64,000 nucleotides of DNA, taken from Ferroplasma acidiphilum (GTDB lineage: Archaea > Thermoplasmatota > Thermoplasmata > Thermoplasmatales > Thermoplasmataceae). Below, piece after piece: positions 1,627 through 29,626 of this stretch. The notes under the pieces were generated by a model. It was not told where the DNA came from and made no database searches. It worked only from the letters and a program-made list of their open reading frames with translations. Location of the stretch: positions 1,178,001 through 1,242,000 of the forward strand of contig NZ_CP015363.1 of the NCBI RefSeq assembly GCF_002078355.1. The letters are read 5' to 3'. The position numbers and the translations under genes are program-made. Position 1 is the first letter of the stretch. The number at the start of each line of letters is the position of its first letter.

Positions 1627-2751
1627 ATGGCAGTAAGTTTGGGATTGGAAGATGTATTCATAAAATATACAGGGTTAACATTTATAGATGGAAACGCAGG
1701 CGTGCTAAGATACAGGGGATATGACATAAACGATCTTGTCCAGAATACTGGATTCGAGGAAGTGTGCTATCTCATGACCAATGGGGAGCTACCGAATAGC
1801 CAGCAGCTGGCAGAATTTAAAAAATCTGTTAAGGAACATTATAAGCTGCCTGACCATGTTATGGAATTAATATCTGACCTGCCAAGGGAAGCGGATACAC
1901 TTACAATGATGGAAACCGCATTTGCCTCTCTCTCCTCAGGTGATTACCAGTGGAATAAGGAAAATGACAGAAAACAGGTTCCAAAAATCCTCGGGGAAAA
2001 TTTGGGAATAATATCAAATATATACAGGCACAAGATGGGAATGGGACTCCAGAATCCTGACCCGAAATACGACTACGCCGAAGCATTTCTAAGGAACTGC
2101 TTTGGAAATGCTGATGAGAAAAAGATTTCTGCAATGAATGCTGCTCTTGTTATATACGTTGACCATGAGGTCCCTGCTTCTACAACAGCAGCCCTTGTTG
2201 CTTCTTCTACTCTTTCCGATATGTATTCATGCATAACAGCAGCTACTGCTGCACTTAAAGGCCCGCTGCATGGTGGAGCAGCTGAAGCGGCATATAAGCA
2301 GTTGCTTGACATAGGAAATGTTGACAATGTGGAGAACTGGTTCAAAACAAACATATTAGATGGCAAGAGAAGACTAATGGGATTCGGGCACAGGGTTTAC
2401 AGGACATATGACCCGAGAATGAAAATATTCAAGAAACTGGCAACTACACTGGAACAGACAGATGAGCAGAAAAAACTCTTTGAAATTGCAGTGAAACTCG
2501 AGGAACTTGGTGTAAAGGAATTCGGTGGCAAAGGAATATATCCAAATACAGATTATTATTCCGGCATAGTTTTCAATGAAATCGGCTTCCCCATATACAT
2601 GTTTACAACCCTGTTTGGATTTTCCAGGGTTCTCGGATGGCTTTCACATATAACAGAGTATGTAGAGGAAGAGGAGAGGTTAATCAGGCCCAGGGCAGTG
2701 TATACAGGACCGGACAAACGTGATTTTGTGAAAATGCAGGATAGAAAATAA
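1627..2751 (+). CDS. gltA: Citrate synthase
   Basis: This 374-residue protein matches the short archaeal/Gram-positive type of citrate synthase, which condenses acetyl-CoA and oxaloacetate into citrate. Visible landmarks are the N-terminal IDGNAGVLRYRGYDI, the VDHE histidine (about 180), GPLHGGAAE (catalytic His about 215) and GFGHRVYRTYDPR (His about 255). The ATG at 1627 is preferred over an upstream TTG at 1612 because it begins just after the CBS gene stop and fits the family N-terminus. The protein is cytosolic and part of the TCA cycle. Confidence 0.95.
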   Translation: MAVSLGLEDVFIKYTGLTFIDGNAGVLRYRGYDINDLVQNTGFEEVCYLMTNGELPNSQQLAEFKKSVKEHYKLPDHVMELISDLPREADTLTMMETAFASLSSGDYQWNKENDRKQVPKILGENLGIISNIYRHKMGMGLQNPDPKYDYAEAFLRNCFGNADEKKISAMNAALVIYVDHEVPASTTAALVASSTLSDMYSCITAATAALKGPLHGGAAEAAYKQLLDIGNVDNVENWFKTNILDGKRRLMGFGHRVYRTYDPRMKIFKKLATTLEQTDEQKKLFEIAVKLEELGVKEFGGKGIYPNTDYYSGIVFNEIGFPIYMFTTLFGFSRVLGWLSHITEYVEEEERLIRPRAVYTGPDKRDFVKMQDRK

Positions 2752-2993
2752 TCCCCTGTATTTTTCAGAAAACTAATTAACATTATATAATTTTGAAAAA
2801 GTTTTTTCCAGATGTTAACTTTATAAATGCCCGATTCAGGTTATAACTATATACAGATTTATACAATATTTAGATTTTGTAGATACTAAAAATTATAAAA
2901 TTAAATTTTTCCTAGTTTTTATCATGCCTGAGGGCTTTTTTATCAATCTTTCCAACAGGTGTAAGTGGTAAGCTATCGGTCAACTACCCACAG

Positions 2994-4130
2994 CTAAAGC
3001 AGTGAGCTTGCAACCAGGGTGTCACAATGGACAAAAAAATCACCCGCTACAATAGGCTGGTTGGCAACAGCCCTGTTCCTGATATTGAGGGAAGCAATAT
3101 AATCTGCTTCTCCCTTTAATCCACAGGAAATGCATTTAAATATAGATCTCTCAGGCCGATTCTTTTTAGATATAGTATGGCAGTTGGGGCATTCCCTGCT
3201 CGTGTTATGTGGGTCTATAACAATAACAGGTATTCCTGCTTCTATTGCCTTATACTCTATGAATAACCTGAGCTGGTAGAAAGCCCATGAATTATGAATA
3301 TATCTATTTCCTTTCTTAACAGTTGTCCTCATTTTAATGCCGGTAAGATCTTCAATGGCAATTGCAGAAGAGGTGCCTTTGGCTTTATTTACTATTTCTT
3401 TAGATATTATATGGTTGGTATTGGTGGCAAATCTATGTTCCTTTCCTGAAAGTTTCTTAAGATGCCTTTTTGCTGATCTGGTATTTACTGATTGCAATCT
3501 GGAGCGGAGATCTAAATTGTGTTCTCTTACATTCTTGATCTCATCTCCGGAATAATATTTGCCTGTAGAATCTACGGAGATATTAGCAATGCCCATATCT
3601 ACACCTATAACATTCTTAGGTTCTATAACTGGTTCTTCCTTTATATCAACGCTTACCATTAAATAGAAAATTTTATGCTTTCTTACAAGGTCACATTGGC
3701 CCCTTACCATATCAAAGGGTATATCAGCATATTTTCCAATGGTTATAGGTATTTTTATTCTTCCCTTAATGGTGTTAAGGCTTACTTCATCCATGCCTTT
3801 AAAACTCATAATTCTCTGGTCATATACAATGCTTCCGTATTCCCGGAATTCATGGAATATTGATCTATCAACCATATATGTGTCCACAACCTTTGCAATA
3901 ACTCTTATGGTTAACTGTGCTGATAACCCGAATTTGTTTCTGATATCATAATATACTAATTTCTGCAAAGAGATTTTATTATATATTTTATTATCCCATG
4001 CTATTTTAGAGACAAAATTACATGCTTCATTGAACTTTTTAAATGTGTTAAGGAGTATATCTTTCTGATTATCCTCTGGAAGCAATTTGATTTGAAGGGT
4101 TTTAAGCACATTATTCAAATATAAACTCAA
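2994..4130 (-). CDS. tnpB: TnpB RNA-guided nuclease / transposon accessory protein
   Basis: The 378-residue length and intact motifs fit a full-length TnpB. The RuvC acidic residues are D178 (GVDMG), E260 (AIEDL) and D343 (GEADYIASLNI). A zinc finger is formed by CPNC (314-317) and CISC (333-336). TnpB proteins of this family are known to use an RNA from the element's right end to cleave DNA next to a short target-adjacent motif. The gene starts at TTG 4130; further TTG (4118) and GTG codons follow closely and could serve instead. Codon use does not look decayed, so the protein may be active although it sits in a dead gene. Confidence 0.92.
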   Translation of the reverse strand: MSLYLNNVLKTLQIKLLPEDNQKDILLNTFKKFNEACNFVSKIAWDNKIYNKISLQKLVYYDIRNKFGLSAQLTIRVIAKVVDTYMVDRSIFHEFREYGSIVYDQRIMSFKGMDEVSLNTIKGRIKIPITIGKYADIPFDMVRGQCDLVRKHKIFYLMVSVDIKEEPVIEPKNVIGVDMGIANISVDSTGKYYSGDEIKNVREHNLDLRSRLQSVNTRSAKRHLKKLSGKEHRFATNTNHIISKEIVNKAKGTSSAIAIEDLTGIKMRTTVKKGNRYIHNSWAFYQLRLFIEYKAIEAGIPVIVIDPHNTSRECPNCHTISKKNRPERSIFKCISCGLKGEADYIASLNIRNRAVANQPIVAGDFFVHCDTLVASSLL

Positions 4131-4153
4131 TATATAAAATTGTCGTAATTCAT

Positions 4154-4173
4154 CCTATGACTGAAGTCATAGG
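4154..4173 (-). repeat. Left-end hairpin of the TnpB element
   Basis: A perfect 8-bp inverted repeat, CCTATGAC and GTCATAGG, encloses a 4-base loop. It lies 18 bases inside the proposed left end. Subterminal hairpins of this kind are the recognition structures for TnpA in IS200/IS605 elements. Confidence 0.85.
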
Positions 4174-4589
4174 CTTCCTTGCTACGGGATCGTGAACTGG
4201 ATAATTTTTGGAACTTTATATTTTGCGAGTTTTTCCTAGCAGTATTTTTTAATTTCGTCCTCCGTAACGGATTTGTCGGAAAGTACTATTATTGCCTTAA
4301 CAGTTTCCCCGCGATGCGCGTCAGGTACCACTACAACAGCACACTGGGACACGCCAGAGTGTTCATACAGAATTTTCTCCACTTCCTCCGGGTATATATT
4401 ATACCCGCCTGCAGTTATCATGTCTTTTTTCCTGTCGACTATATTCAATAATTAGTTAATATTTAAACAATTTTCAAATCCCATGAAAGTTATAATTTTT
4501 AAAATAACAACAAATTAATTATTTTTCAGATAATTATAACATATGCATATATAATAGTAATGTTTATATGATAATATTAAATTTATTAA

Positions 4590-4766
4590 CGTAGGTGGAA
4601 TAATCGATGCACTTAAACATAAGGCATCAACACCTATATTTTACCTGAAGATAGCAGGGGATTTACGCCCGGGGAAACATTAACCGATACCTTTGAAGGG
4701 CTTAATACTTCATATGTGAAGGCAAATTATGTCGATGAACCAGGAAGCTTCAATGCTTTGGAATGA
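4590..4766 (+). pseudogene. Probable gene remnant of unknown identity
   Basis: The space between the acyl-CoA synthetase remnant and purC holds two overlapping stretches that read like protein. One frame gives IDALKHKASTPIFYLKIAGD, then stops. A shifted frame continues FTPGETLTDTFEGLNTSYV and KANYVDEPGSFNALE to a stop near 4766. The composition is protein-like in both and the frames switch near 4665, suggesting a frameshifted leftover of a longer gene. I cannot name the family. The stretch 4456-4590 is very AT-rich and shows nothing else. Confidence 0.35.
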
Positions 4767-4772
4767 GGTAGT

Positions 4773-5663
4773 TCACCACTTTAATCCAGTTATTTTTTCG
4801 TACATATGAATGTATAAATCTGAAACTGTTTTAACAATATTTTCCGGCAAAGGTTCTATATCCGGCTCCGGTTGATTATTATCCCTGGCATCATAGAGTT
4901 TCTGGTGGTATCCTGTTTTTCTGTAATATTGCCTTACCATTTCCTTGCTGAGTTCATTTACCTGCCCGTTCTCATAATCTTTCTTATCCCAGAACCTGTC
5001 TTCATCCAGCGTGCCGAATGTATCAATTATTACCGGTTTTCTTTCAAGGCCCAGTGCAAATTCTTTCTTTCCATCGGCATGAATAAGCCCCCTGCTTTCC
5101 ACAGAACTATTTATCCTTCTGTCTATCTTAAAAATGGTTTCCTGAATCTCGCATAATTCACCGGCATCAAGGCCAGAAATTTCAAGTGCCTCATCAGTAT
5201 GAAGATATCTATCAAACTTTTCGAATTTTGTTGAAACTTCAAAAAATGGGTCTGGAAGTTTTTCTCCATAAACAGGAGGATTCTTGAAACCCAGGGAATG
5301 ATAGTCAATTTCCCCCGATTTTACCCTGTCATAGGCGGAACCAGCAAGATAGTACCTTGTTATAAACTCCAGAGGTACCATATAATTTGAAAGAAATTTA
5401 TAACCGCGGTCTATCTGCCTGAATTTTTTTACTTTCATTTCTGAATCAGACACAAGTTCAATAAAATCTGTATCTATCCCCAGGGATGATACAATATTAT
5501 ACCAGTAAGTTGAGGTTCTGCACAGTGATTCGCCCTTATGTGGGATAGAATCTGGAATAATCTTATCGAATACGGATATTCTGTCCGAAAATTTAAAGAC
5601 CAGATCCTTTCCATCGTCATATACATCCTTTACCTTGCCTTTTCTAAGAAGTTCCATGCCCAT
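4773..5663 (-). CDS. purC: Phosphoribosylaminoimidazole-succinocarboxamide synthase
   Basis: This 296-residue SAICAR synthetase ligates aspartate to CAIR with ATP in purine synthesis. Family landmarks are GKVKDVYD near the N-terminus, FSDRISVFDKIIPDSIPHKG (nucleotide- and substrate-binding region), EFITRYYLAGSAYDR, and LIHADGKKEFALG followed by VIIDTFGTLDEDRFW. The length is typical of archaeal and eukaryotic-like forms. Two in-frame ATGs (5663 and 5657) are possible starts; an AT-rich TATA-like element near 5680-5690 favours the first. It appears to be transcribed alone. Confidence 0.95.
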   Translation of the reverse strand: MGMELLRKGKVKDVYDDGKDLVFKFSDRISVFDKIIPDSIPHKGESLCRTSTYWYNIVSSLGIDTDFIELVSDSEMKVKKFRQIDRGYKFLSNYMVPLEFITRYYLAGSAYDRVKSGEIDYHSLGFKNPPVYGEKLPDPFFEVSTKFEKFDRYLHTDEALEISGLDAGELCEIQETIFKIDRRINSSVESRGLIHADGKKEFALGLERKPVIIDTFGTLDEDRFWDKKDYENGQVNELSKEMVRQYYRKTGYHQKLYDARDNNQPEPDIEPLPENIVKTVSDLYIHMYEKITGLKW

Positions 5664-28005: not shown

Positions 28006-29626
28006 TTAGTTCACCTTCCTGTATATTAAACGGGCGGCAATTAGCAGGAATATTATCACTACTATAAAGAATTCCAGGCTACTTACTGCCATCTGCAAAT
28101 CACCGCTCAGTATATGCCCTGAAGCACAGCCATCTGCCATCCTTGCCCCAAGCAACATCATGAAACCTCCTGTAAAAGCACCTCCTGCCCTTTTTATCTG
28201 GCTGTTTCCAAATCTTGTCTCCCATGAAGGAGGAATAACGCTGTTGAATGATTGAAATCTCCTTGTGAAAAATATTGAAGCCAGAAAAGCACCGAATAGA
28301 GTACCTATATCACTGAAAGGTTCCCATCCTATTGTGTGGACAACAAGAGTGCTATAGCTATATACTCCTGCAGAAGCCATATTTTTGCCACAATCCATGA
28401 ATACGTTGTTGATTCGCCAAAGATCTGGTGCAGAAACATTTCCAGTACAAGCATTAACCCTATAATTATTCCTACGGACATCATGACCACACCAAATAAT
28501 TTAGATGAAACAGTCCAGTGATAATTTACTTTCTCAGCAATATTGTTCTTGCCAAGTGGCATAGAAGCCCCTTCCATAAGCATTCCCGCAGTTTCTATGT
28601 ATTTTTCCTGTTCAACTGTGCTCATTTTCCCTGATTTGTGCAATGAAGTATAAGCACAGCTTTTTCCTCCCTTATACCTTGGAAGGAAATATGCTATGGA
28701 GAACATAACTATTGCCCACACAACTGCTATTCCAAATCCAACGTATAGATTTGTATCTACTTTGCCACCGAAATAAATTTGCCCAAAATTATCGTAGCTT
28801 ATTAACCATTGCCCGAACGATGTCTGATATATCAGTGTCCAGGATGCTGCTCCAAGCAATCCACCAAGCAGCGCGTATATAGCGTCACGCCTTCCTTCTC
28901 CGAGTCCCATCCATACCGTACCTGGAACATATCCTGAAATTGCAATTCCTACTCCGAACAATGCAGCTCCAAAGGCCACACCCAGTACATAATCAGGTTT
29001 AACTCCCCAATGGAATGCAACACCAAGTGCAGCTAACCCATAAAGTGCAAGAGCTCCTGCCCCTATAGCTATTGCTATACACCCTACAAATAACCTGTCC
29101 TGCCATTTACGATCCCGTAGCAGAAAGCCTCCTGATTCAGCTGTAGGATGAATGCGTAAATTCTATATACTTATAAAATATCAATATTCAGGCATTATAC
29201 TACTTTTAAGCAAGTTATGCCAGTAAATCCTGAGTATATCATTGATCCGTAAGGACTTGTGTAACAGGTTGGAAATGCCTCTGTGCCCCGGTACAGCATG
29301 GTACAGGCAAAAGGCATATTCAAATTGCATGTAGACAGAGATGCGTACAAAGGGAACACTGACACCCCTGGAGAGGCAACATCATAACCGGTAGCTACCT
29401 TAAAACTCAACAATTGGTTCCTGCAAAACCGTCCGGACCGCGAGGGATGAAGACGAATCATAAGGAAAAGTAGGAACCCCACATGCTTTAGCAGTGGGAG
29501 TATGTCAGCTAATCTTATAAGTACCTCGGGATTAGAGATTCCCCAGGCTTCAGCGAGCCCTCCTATTACCATTCCAATAAATAAACCAATCCATTCCCAT
29601 GCAGTTACACTAATCATTTCATTCAC
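28006..29626 (-). pseudogene. YeeE/YedE-family sulfur-compound transporter, interrupted and frameshifted
   Basis: The N-terminus (29626 down to about 29503) encodes [20 protein letters not shown] and ends at [11 protein letters not shown]. It is interrupted by an element (29111-29502), then resumes KWQDRLFVGC and the membrane core with GYVPGT and GLGEGRRDA. Near 28377 the frame shifts: KIW is followed in the other frame by [21 protein letters not shown], running to the typical [12 protein letters not shown] and the stop at 28006. The family imports thiosulfate or related sulfur compounds. With two lesions it cannot make a normal protein unless both are by-passed. Confidence 0.88.
29111..29502 (+). 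mobile_element. TnpB-less IS605-type derivative
   Basis: The left end reads GATCCCGTAGCA, the same first 12 bases as the TnpB element at 2979-4191, followed by a degenerate version of its hairpin (GCCTCCTGATTCAGCTGTAGG is the region 29127-29147). The right end carries CCCAC-TGC-TTTA-GCA-GTGGG (29478-29499), related to the other right end. The left flank is TTTAC. Removing it allows RLAD-S-KWQDRLF to read through. The roughly 390 bases have no long ORF; the interior may derive from a tnpB 3' end and guide-RNA region. The exact right end is uncertain by a few bases. Confidence 0.75.

What the first reader, a model, noticed from the sequence alone, without database searches (positions are those of the whole stretch)
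2979..4191. TnpB element with a fully reconstructable empty site inside a dead acyl-CoA synthetase
Deleting 2979-4191 exactly restores the frame of the acyl-CoA synthetase C-terminus (QFT-DSLPLTP), with no target duplication, so both ends are defined to the base. TnpB itself keeps all RuvC and zinc residues. The flank TTCAC gives a candidate target-adjacent motif, and the sequence past the right end (CGATAGCTTACCACT on the reverse strand) would be the current guide of its RNA. That guide points into the damaged host gene.
Basis: partly seen in the sequence, partly recalled or inferred. Interest (0 to 1): 0.75.

Follow-up and report, generated by a model that had tools for sequence, protein, structure and literature searches.

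The report
Transposase-less TnpB insertion in Ferroplasma pseudogene

Summary
The window lies in the 1,826,943-bp genome of Ferroplasma acidiphilum YT. At 2979-4191 (minus strand) is a 1,213-bp IS200/IS605-type, tnpB-only (IS1341-group) element. Its sister Fer1 carries the empty site in an intact acyl-CoA synthetase gene, with no target duplication. Three more filled/empty pairs exist between the two genomes, and all eight full copies share these ends. The left flank is [T/A]TCAC in seven of eight copies. TnpB keeps its RuvC D-E-D residues and zinc cysteines. The right end is an omega-RNA-like region: third-codon positions are 99% conserved in the last 88 nt of the ORF (73-83% before), and the terminal hairpin covaries.

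Corrections: the ends are ambiguous by two bases (TTC[AC]/TTG[AC]). TTTAC belongs to a different, tnpA-bearing lineage in the same genome, and the difference tracks the left-end guide (GAAG with TTCAC, AAAG with TTTAC), as IS608 base pairing predicts. The guide matches the host gene by construction; its only match in this genome is the filled site itself, next to TTGAC, one base from the motif. The host gene also lost about 1.6 kb and gained a stop codon. RNA production and cleavage are inferred. New member of a known kind.

The parts
2979..4191 (-). tnpB-only IS200/IS605-type (IS1341-group) element, 1213 bp (equivalent placements 2980-4192, 2981-4193)
   Evidence: same length and ends in 8 copies; empty site in Fer1
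4192..4196 (-). target / predicted TAM, TTCAC, 5' of the left end
   Evidence: TTCAC or ATCAC beside 7 of 8 full copies; kept in the Fer1 empty site
4174..4177 (-). left guide GAAG, pairs with TTC of the target by the IS608 rule
   Evidence: GAAG with TTCAC/ATCAC, AAAG with TTTAC
4154..4173 (-). left-end subterminal hairpin CCTATGAC-TTCA-GTCATAGG
   Evidence: folds as ssDNA; 7 of 8 pairs with compensatory changes across 12 copies
2994..4109 (-). tnpB, 371 aa from a GTG start (ORF listed as 2994-4130 from TTG)
   Evidence: NCBIfam guided_TnpB 173.9 bits against cut-off 100
3597..3599 (-). RuvC-I Asp171
3351..3353 (-). RuvC-II Glu253
3102..3104 (-). RuvC-III Asp336
3123..3191 (-). zinc finger CPNC...CISC
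2979..3082 (-). predicted omega-RNA scaffold, overlapping the 3' end of tnpB
   Evidence: third-codon conservation 0.99 here against 0.73-0.83 upstream; three helices, 97% of cells paired
2986..3007 (-). right-end terminal hairpin; tnpB stop codon lies in it
   Evidence: 5 pairs with compensatory changes
2979..2983 (-). right-end terminus TTGAC; right guide CAAG at 3007-3010 can pair with its TTG
2959..2978 (-). predicted current guide CGATAGCTTACCACTTACAC
   Evidence: flank of the right end; no TAM-flanked match in this genome
4192..4448 (-). acyl-CoA synthetase pseudogene, upstream piece (in-frame TAG at 4236-4238; truncated at about 4441)
2912..2978 (-). acyl-CoA synthetase pseudogene, C-terminal piece with the PLTPVGK motif

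Best explanation
This is a tnpB-only member of the IS200/IS605 family (IS1341 group) in Ferroplasma acidiphilum YT. A single-stranded circle of the element inserted 3' of TTCAC, most likely by a HUH (Y1) transposase acting in trans, with the left guide GAAG pairing to the target; no bases were duplicated. The tnpB transcript is expected to run through the right end into the flank and be processed to an omega RNA whose last 16-20 nt (CGATAGCTTACCACTT...) match the empty site. TnpB would then cut chromosomes from which the element has been lost (TTCAC plus guide target), and repair from a filled copy would restore it. The filled site escapes because TTGAC, not TTCAC, abuts the guide. Shown: anatomy, ends, empty sites, TAM and guide covariation, conserved catalytic residues, constrained right end. 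Inferred: trans-mobilisation, RNA processing, cleavage, retention.
For: TnpB domains and family; catalytic D/E/D and four Cys aligned to solved TnpB/Cas12f chains; empty site in Fer1 plus three more filled/empty pairs; identical ends in 8 copies with different flanks; TCAC flank P about 4e-17; GAAG/TTCAC and AAAG/TTTAC covariation matching the IS608 rule (PMC5934647); right end constrained beyond its coding role with a covarying hairpin; left hairpin covaries; two intact Y1 transposases elsewhere in the genome; right-end RNA with about 16 nt of flank and TAM-dependent cleavage shown for ISDra2 (PMC8612924) and TAM-dependent cleavage for archaeal SisTnpB1 (PMC10640517).
Against: No RNA-seq or biochemistry. 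Both tnpA-bearing elements of this genome have a different left target (TTTAC/AAAG) and right terminus, so trans-mobilisation is not demonstrated. In S. islandicus, unlike IS605-group tnpBs, the IS1341-type tnpB genes showed no right-end transcript (PMC11043419). The RNA folding energy of this one copy is only mildly unusual (z = -1.8). Two of four orthologous empty sites (those in YT) lack the exact TAM: ATTAC and AGCCA.
Confidence: 0.85

Rival explanations
1. A dead or purely passive relic: the element moved in the past, but TnpB and the right end no longer do anything.
For: The genome holds many decayed fragments; the third full copy L003 has stops; the host locus is decaying.
Against: Frame and catalytic residues intact in this copy; first and second codon positions are far more conserved than third between copies; the right end is conserved at third positions too; copies differ in position between YT and Fer1.
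Confidence: 0.12
2. TnpB domesticated as a host regulator using the flank-derived guide, not a transposon-retention nuclease.
For: A tnpB-only element has no tnpA of its own; the frame is intact.
Against: RuvC residues intact; flanks and hence guides differ between insertions and no conserved guide target is seen; copies are still polymorphic in position.
Confidence: 0.03
3. The Fer1 locus is not a never-inserted site but one from which the element excised precisely.
For: Excision of this family is also precise (general knowledge; PMC8612924); only two genomes were compared at this locus.
Against: Insertion after divergence is simpler; homologous acyl-CoA synthetase genes in other Ferroplasma align without an insert.
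Confidence: 0.1

Closest known systems
IS1341-group (tnpB-only) elements of the IS200/IS605 family in archaea, e.g. Haloquadratum and Natronomonas (PMC3119063) and Sulfolobus islandicus (PMC11043419, PMC10640517)
   Same: tnpB alone, subterminal palindromes, no terminal inverted repeats, no target duplication, transposase-free small derivatives alongside
   Different: Target-adjacent motif here WTCAC (solo tnpB elements of S. islandicus: TTTAT predicted); right terminus TTGAC
ISDra2 TnpB of Deinococcus radiodurans (PMC8612924)
   Same: RuvC D/E/D and zinc finger, right-end RNA overlapping tnpB, guide taken from the flank, TAM equal to the insertion target
   Different: TAM TTGAT; carries its own tnpA; activity shown there, not here
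IS608 of Helicobacter pylori (PMC5934647)
   Same: Target read by DNA-DNA pairing with a guide 5' of the left hairpin (IS608: TTAC with AAAG; here TTCAC with GAAG)
   Different: IS608 carries tnpA; right cleavage site TCAA/GAAT there, TTGAC/CAAG here

Membership tests
IS200/IS605 family, IS1341 group | TnpB with RuvC D-E-D and zinc finger | tested here: met
IS200/IS605 family, IS1341 group | no tnpA inside the element | tested here: met
   one search shows only tnpB; one search places the two Y1 genes elsewhere
IS200/IS605 family, IS1341 group | insertion 3' of a short fixed target without duplication | tested here: met
IS200/IS605 family, IS1341 group | subterminal hairpins instead of terminal inverted repeats | tested here: met
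   the right hairpin did not form in the single-copy ssDNA fold but covaries in the alignment
IS200/IS605 family, IS1341 group | guide sequences 5' of the hairpins pair with the cleavage sites | tested here: met
   (left: GAAG/TTCAC, AAAG/TTTAC); right CAAG/TTGAC read from the sequence; right end of the tnpA-bearing lineage not resolved
IS200/IS605 family, IS1341 group | movement by a HUH transposase via single-stranded circles | not testable with these tools
   needs excision assays
OMEGA TnpB nuclease | right-end RNA with conserved structure overlapping the 3' end of tnpB | tested here: met
   (conservation and covariation only; expression not seen)
OMEGA TnpB nuclease | RNA-guided, TAM-dependent DNA cleavage | not testable with these tools
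   needs biochemistry
IS607 family | serine recombinase tnpA in the element | tested here: not met
   no other gene in the element

The most novel reading that the evidence does not exclude
The filled allele is a natural footprint of TnpB-driven retention. The first ~22.6 kb of the window is about 99.4% identical to Fer1, except an island of divergence at 2735-4440 that holds the insertion; incoming empty DNA would have been cut by TnpB and repaired from the resident filled copy.
Probability: 0.06. Interest if true: 0.7.

Novelty: new member of a known kind. Interest (0 to 1): 0.3.

Why it matters
It gives a clean, fully delimited tnpB-only element in an acidophilic archaeon with four filled/empty pairs between two close strains, a predicted TAM, guide and omega RNA, and two lineages in one genome whose targets differ by one base in step with their left guide. 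That makes two questions easy to test: whether TnpB tells TTCAC from TTGAC by one base (self against non-self), and whether TnpB and the transposase read the same target in parallel.

Tried and rejected
Rfam: only sub-threshold matches (HEARO 25 bits against cut-off 83, on the opposite strand; Acido-Lenti-1), treated as chance. Off-target reading of the guide: the paralogous acyl-CoA synthetase at 988,871 has TTCAG and many mismatches, so it is not a target; no other match to TAM plus guide in the genome. L003's TTCAT: its left flank does not match that of its right-end orthologue L111, so it was not used as evidence for a TAM variant. L007's TTTAC: its left guide is AAAG, so it belongs to the tnpA-bearing lineage. 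Co-conversion by TnpB as the cause of the divergence island: not favoured, because filled/empty differences can only be seen outside recently exchanged DNA, the part closest to the insertion is the least diverged, and the L002 site shows no such pattern. Structure prediction was not run, since the family assignment did not need it.

Full report
What was checked. The window is G000:C1:1178001-1242000 of a 1,826,943-bp single-contig genome. That length is exactly the published size of Ferroplasma acidiphilum YT (PMC5473848), and the best named relative is F. acidarmanus Fer1, whose genome (same coordinates as G042) is grouped in the same species by the search tool. The ORF at 2994-4130 minus is a TnpB (NCBIfam guided_TnpB 173.9 bits, cut-off 100; Pfam OrfB_IS605 and Cas12f1-like_TNB). 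The alignment with solved TnpB/Cas12f chains pairs its D171, E253, D336 and four cysteines with theirs. The likely start is GTG at 4109, giving 371 aa; this rests on the usual TnpB N-terminus, from general knowledge.

Ends and empty site. Removing 2979-4191 restores the acyl-CoA synthetase frame. Fer1 carries the uninterrupted site, CAGTTCAC-TGATAGC, in an intact synthetase gene. The junction can slide by two bases because TTCAC and TTGAC both end in AC, so sequence alone does not fix the cut; the family convention does. Three more sites give the same answer: the YT copy L002 is empty in Fer1 at TTTCAC-ATATAG, and the Fer1 copies L114 and L105 are empty in YT. In the last two, the YT empty site reads ATTAC and AGCCA instead of ATCAC.

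The family of copies. Eight full copies (three in YT, four in Fer1, one in G002) are 1212-1213 bp with the same ends. Left flanks are TTCAC or ATCAC in seven and TTCAT in one rearranged copy; P for TCAC in at least 7 of 8 is about 4e-17. More distant relatives in the family also sit behind TTCAC or ATCAC and end in GTAGTTGAC.

Target reading. All these elements have GAAG directly 5' of the left hairpin. In the same genome the two tnpA+tnpB elements and one left-end fragment, and one further left end in Fer1, sit behind TTTAC and have AAAG. Position 3 of the target thus covaries with position 1 of the left guide, as the IS608 pairing rule predicts (GL AAAG with TTAC; PMC5934647). On the right, CAAG stands 5' of the hairpin and the element ends TTGAC, again a TTG/CAA match. 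So the two ends differ by one base in their cleavage sites, each matched by its own guide. The consequence for TnpB is an inference: in the filled site the guide target is preceded by TTGAC and not by the TAM. In the whole YT genome the only match to TTCAC plus the first 15 guide bases (up to 3 mismatches) is this filled site with TTGAC; in Fer1 it is the empty site with one mismatch at guide position 1.

The RNA. Between the eight copies, third-codon positions are 73-83% conserved up to about 100 nt before the end and 99% conserved in the last 88 nt of the ORF, which marks a second, non-coding constraint there. Nineteen right ends fold into three helices (97.2% of cells paired; slid controls 27-59%), with compensatory changes in five of eight pairs of the terminal hairpin. 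The left hairpin has such changes in seven of eight pairs. These hairpins are also expected transposase binding sites on single-stranded DNA, so covariation alone does not separate RNA from DNA function; the third-codon signal upstream of the terminal hairpin speaks for RNA.

Mechanism. The best-supported account is insertion by a Y1 transposase in trans, followed by retention through RNA-guided cleavage of empty chromosomes, as proposed for ISDra2 (PMC8612924). Shown here: anatomy, precise insertion, shared ends, target code, intact catalytic residues, constrained right end. Not shown: RNA, cleavage, trans-mobilisation. A caution is that in S. islandicus the tnpB-only type lacked a detectable right-end transcript (PMC11043419).

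The host gene. It carries three lesions: this insertion, which separates the C-terminal PLTPVGK part; a CAG-to-TAG stop at 4236-4238; and a deletion of about 1.6 kb with a few bases of microhomology, joining at about 4441 to a remnant of another TnpB element. Their order is unknown.

Mosaic surroundings. Window 1 to about 22,600 is about 99.4% identical to Fer1 against 96.5% over the whole window, apart from 2735-2978 (88%) and 4192-4440 (95%). The simplest reading is that filled/empty differences can only persist in DNA that was not recently exchanged. A TnpB-driven retention event is possible but unsupported; two of the three other sites lie near the edge of an identical tract and one does not.

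Verdict. Observation confirmed, interpretation supported with corrections, new member of a known kind.

Noticed in passing
G000:C1:967600-968500 (L161), element about 321 bp: A tnpB-less mini-element with the same ends (TTCAC|GATCC...GGGTAGTTGAC) and an omega-RNA-like right end; resembles the PATEs of Haloquadratum and could borrow TnpB in trans.
   Followed up: partly
window 1-22600 and 2735-4440: Mosaic similarity to F. acidarmanus Fer1: about 99.4% identical with a divergent island around the insertion; the rest of the window is mostly 90-96% identical.
   Followed up: partly
window 4441-4790: Remnant of a second TnpB element type (related to the 470-aa TnpBs of this genome), identical in Fer1; the deletion that removed the synthetase N-terminus ends in it.
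   Followed up: partly
window about 29106-29169 (L007): Solo left end of the tnpA-bearing lineage (TTTAC target, AAAG guide).
   Followed up: partly
L004 (G000:C1:1480582-1480743) and L117 (G041:C1:617575-617736): Right-end-only relic of this element kept at the same place in both genomes, with a decayed terminus TTGGT.
   Followed up: no
L122 and L123: Two YT empty sites orthologous to filled Fer1 sites lack the exact TAM (ATTAC, AGCCA); too few cases to say whether this reflects escape from cutting.
   Followed up: no
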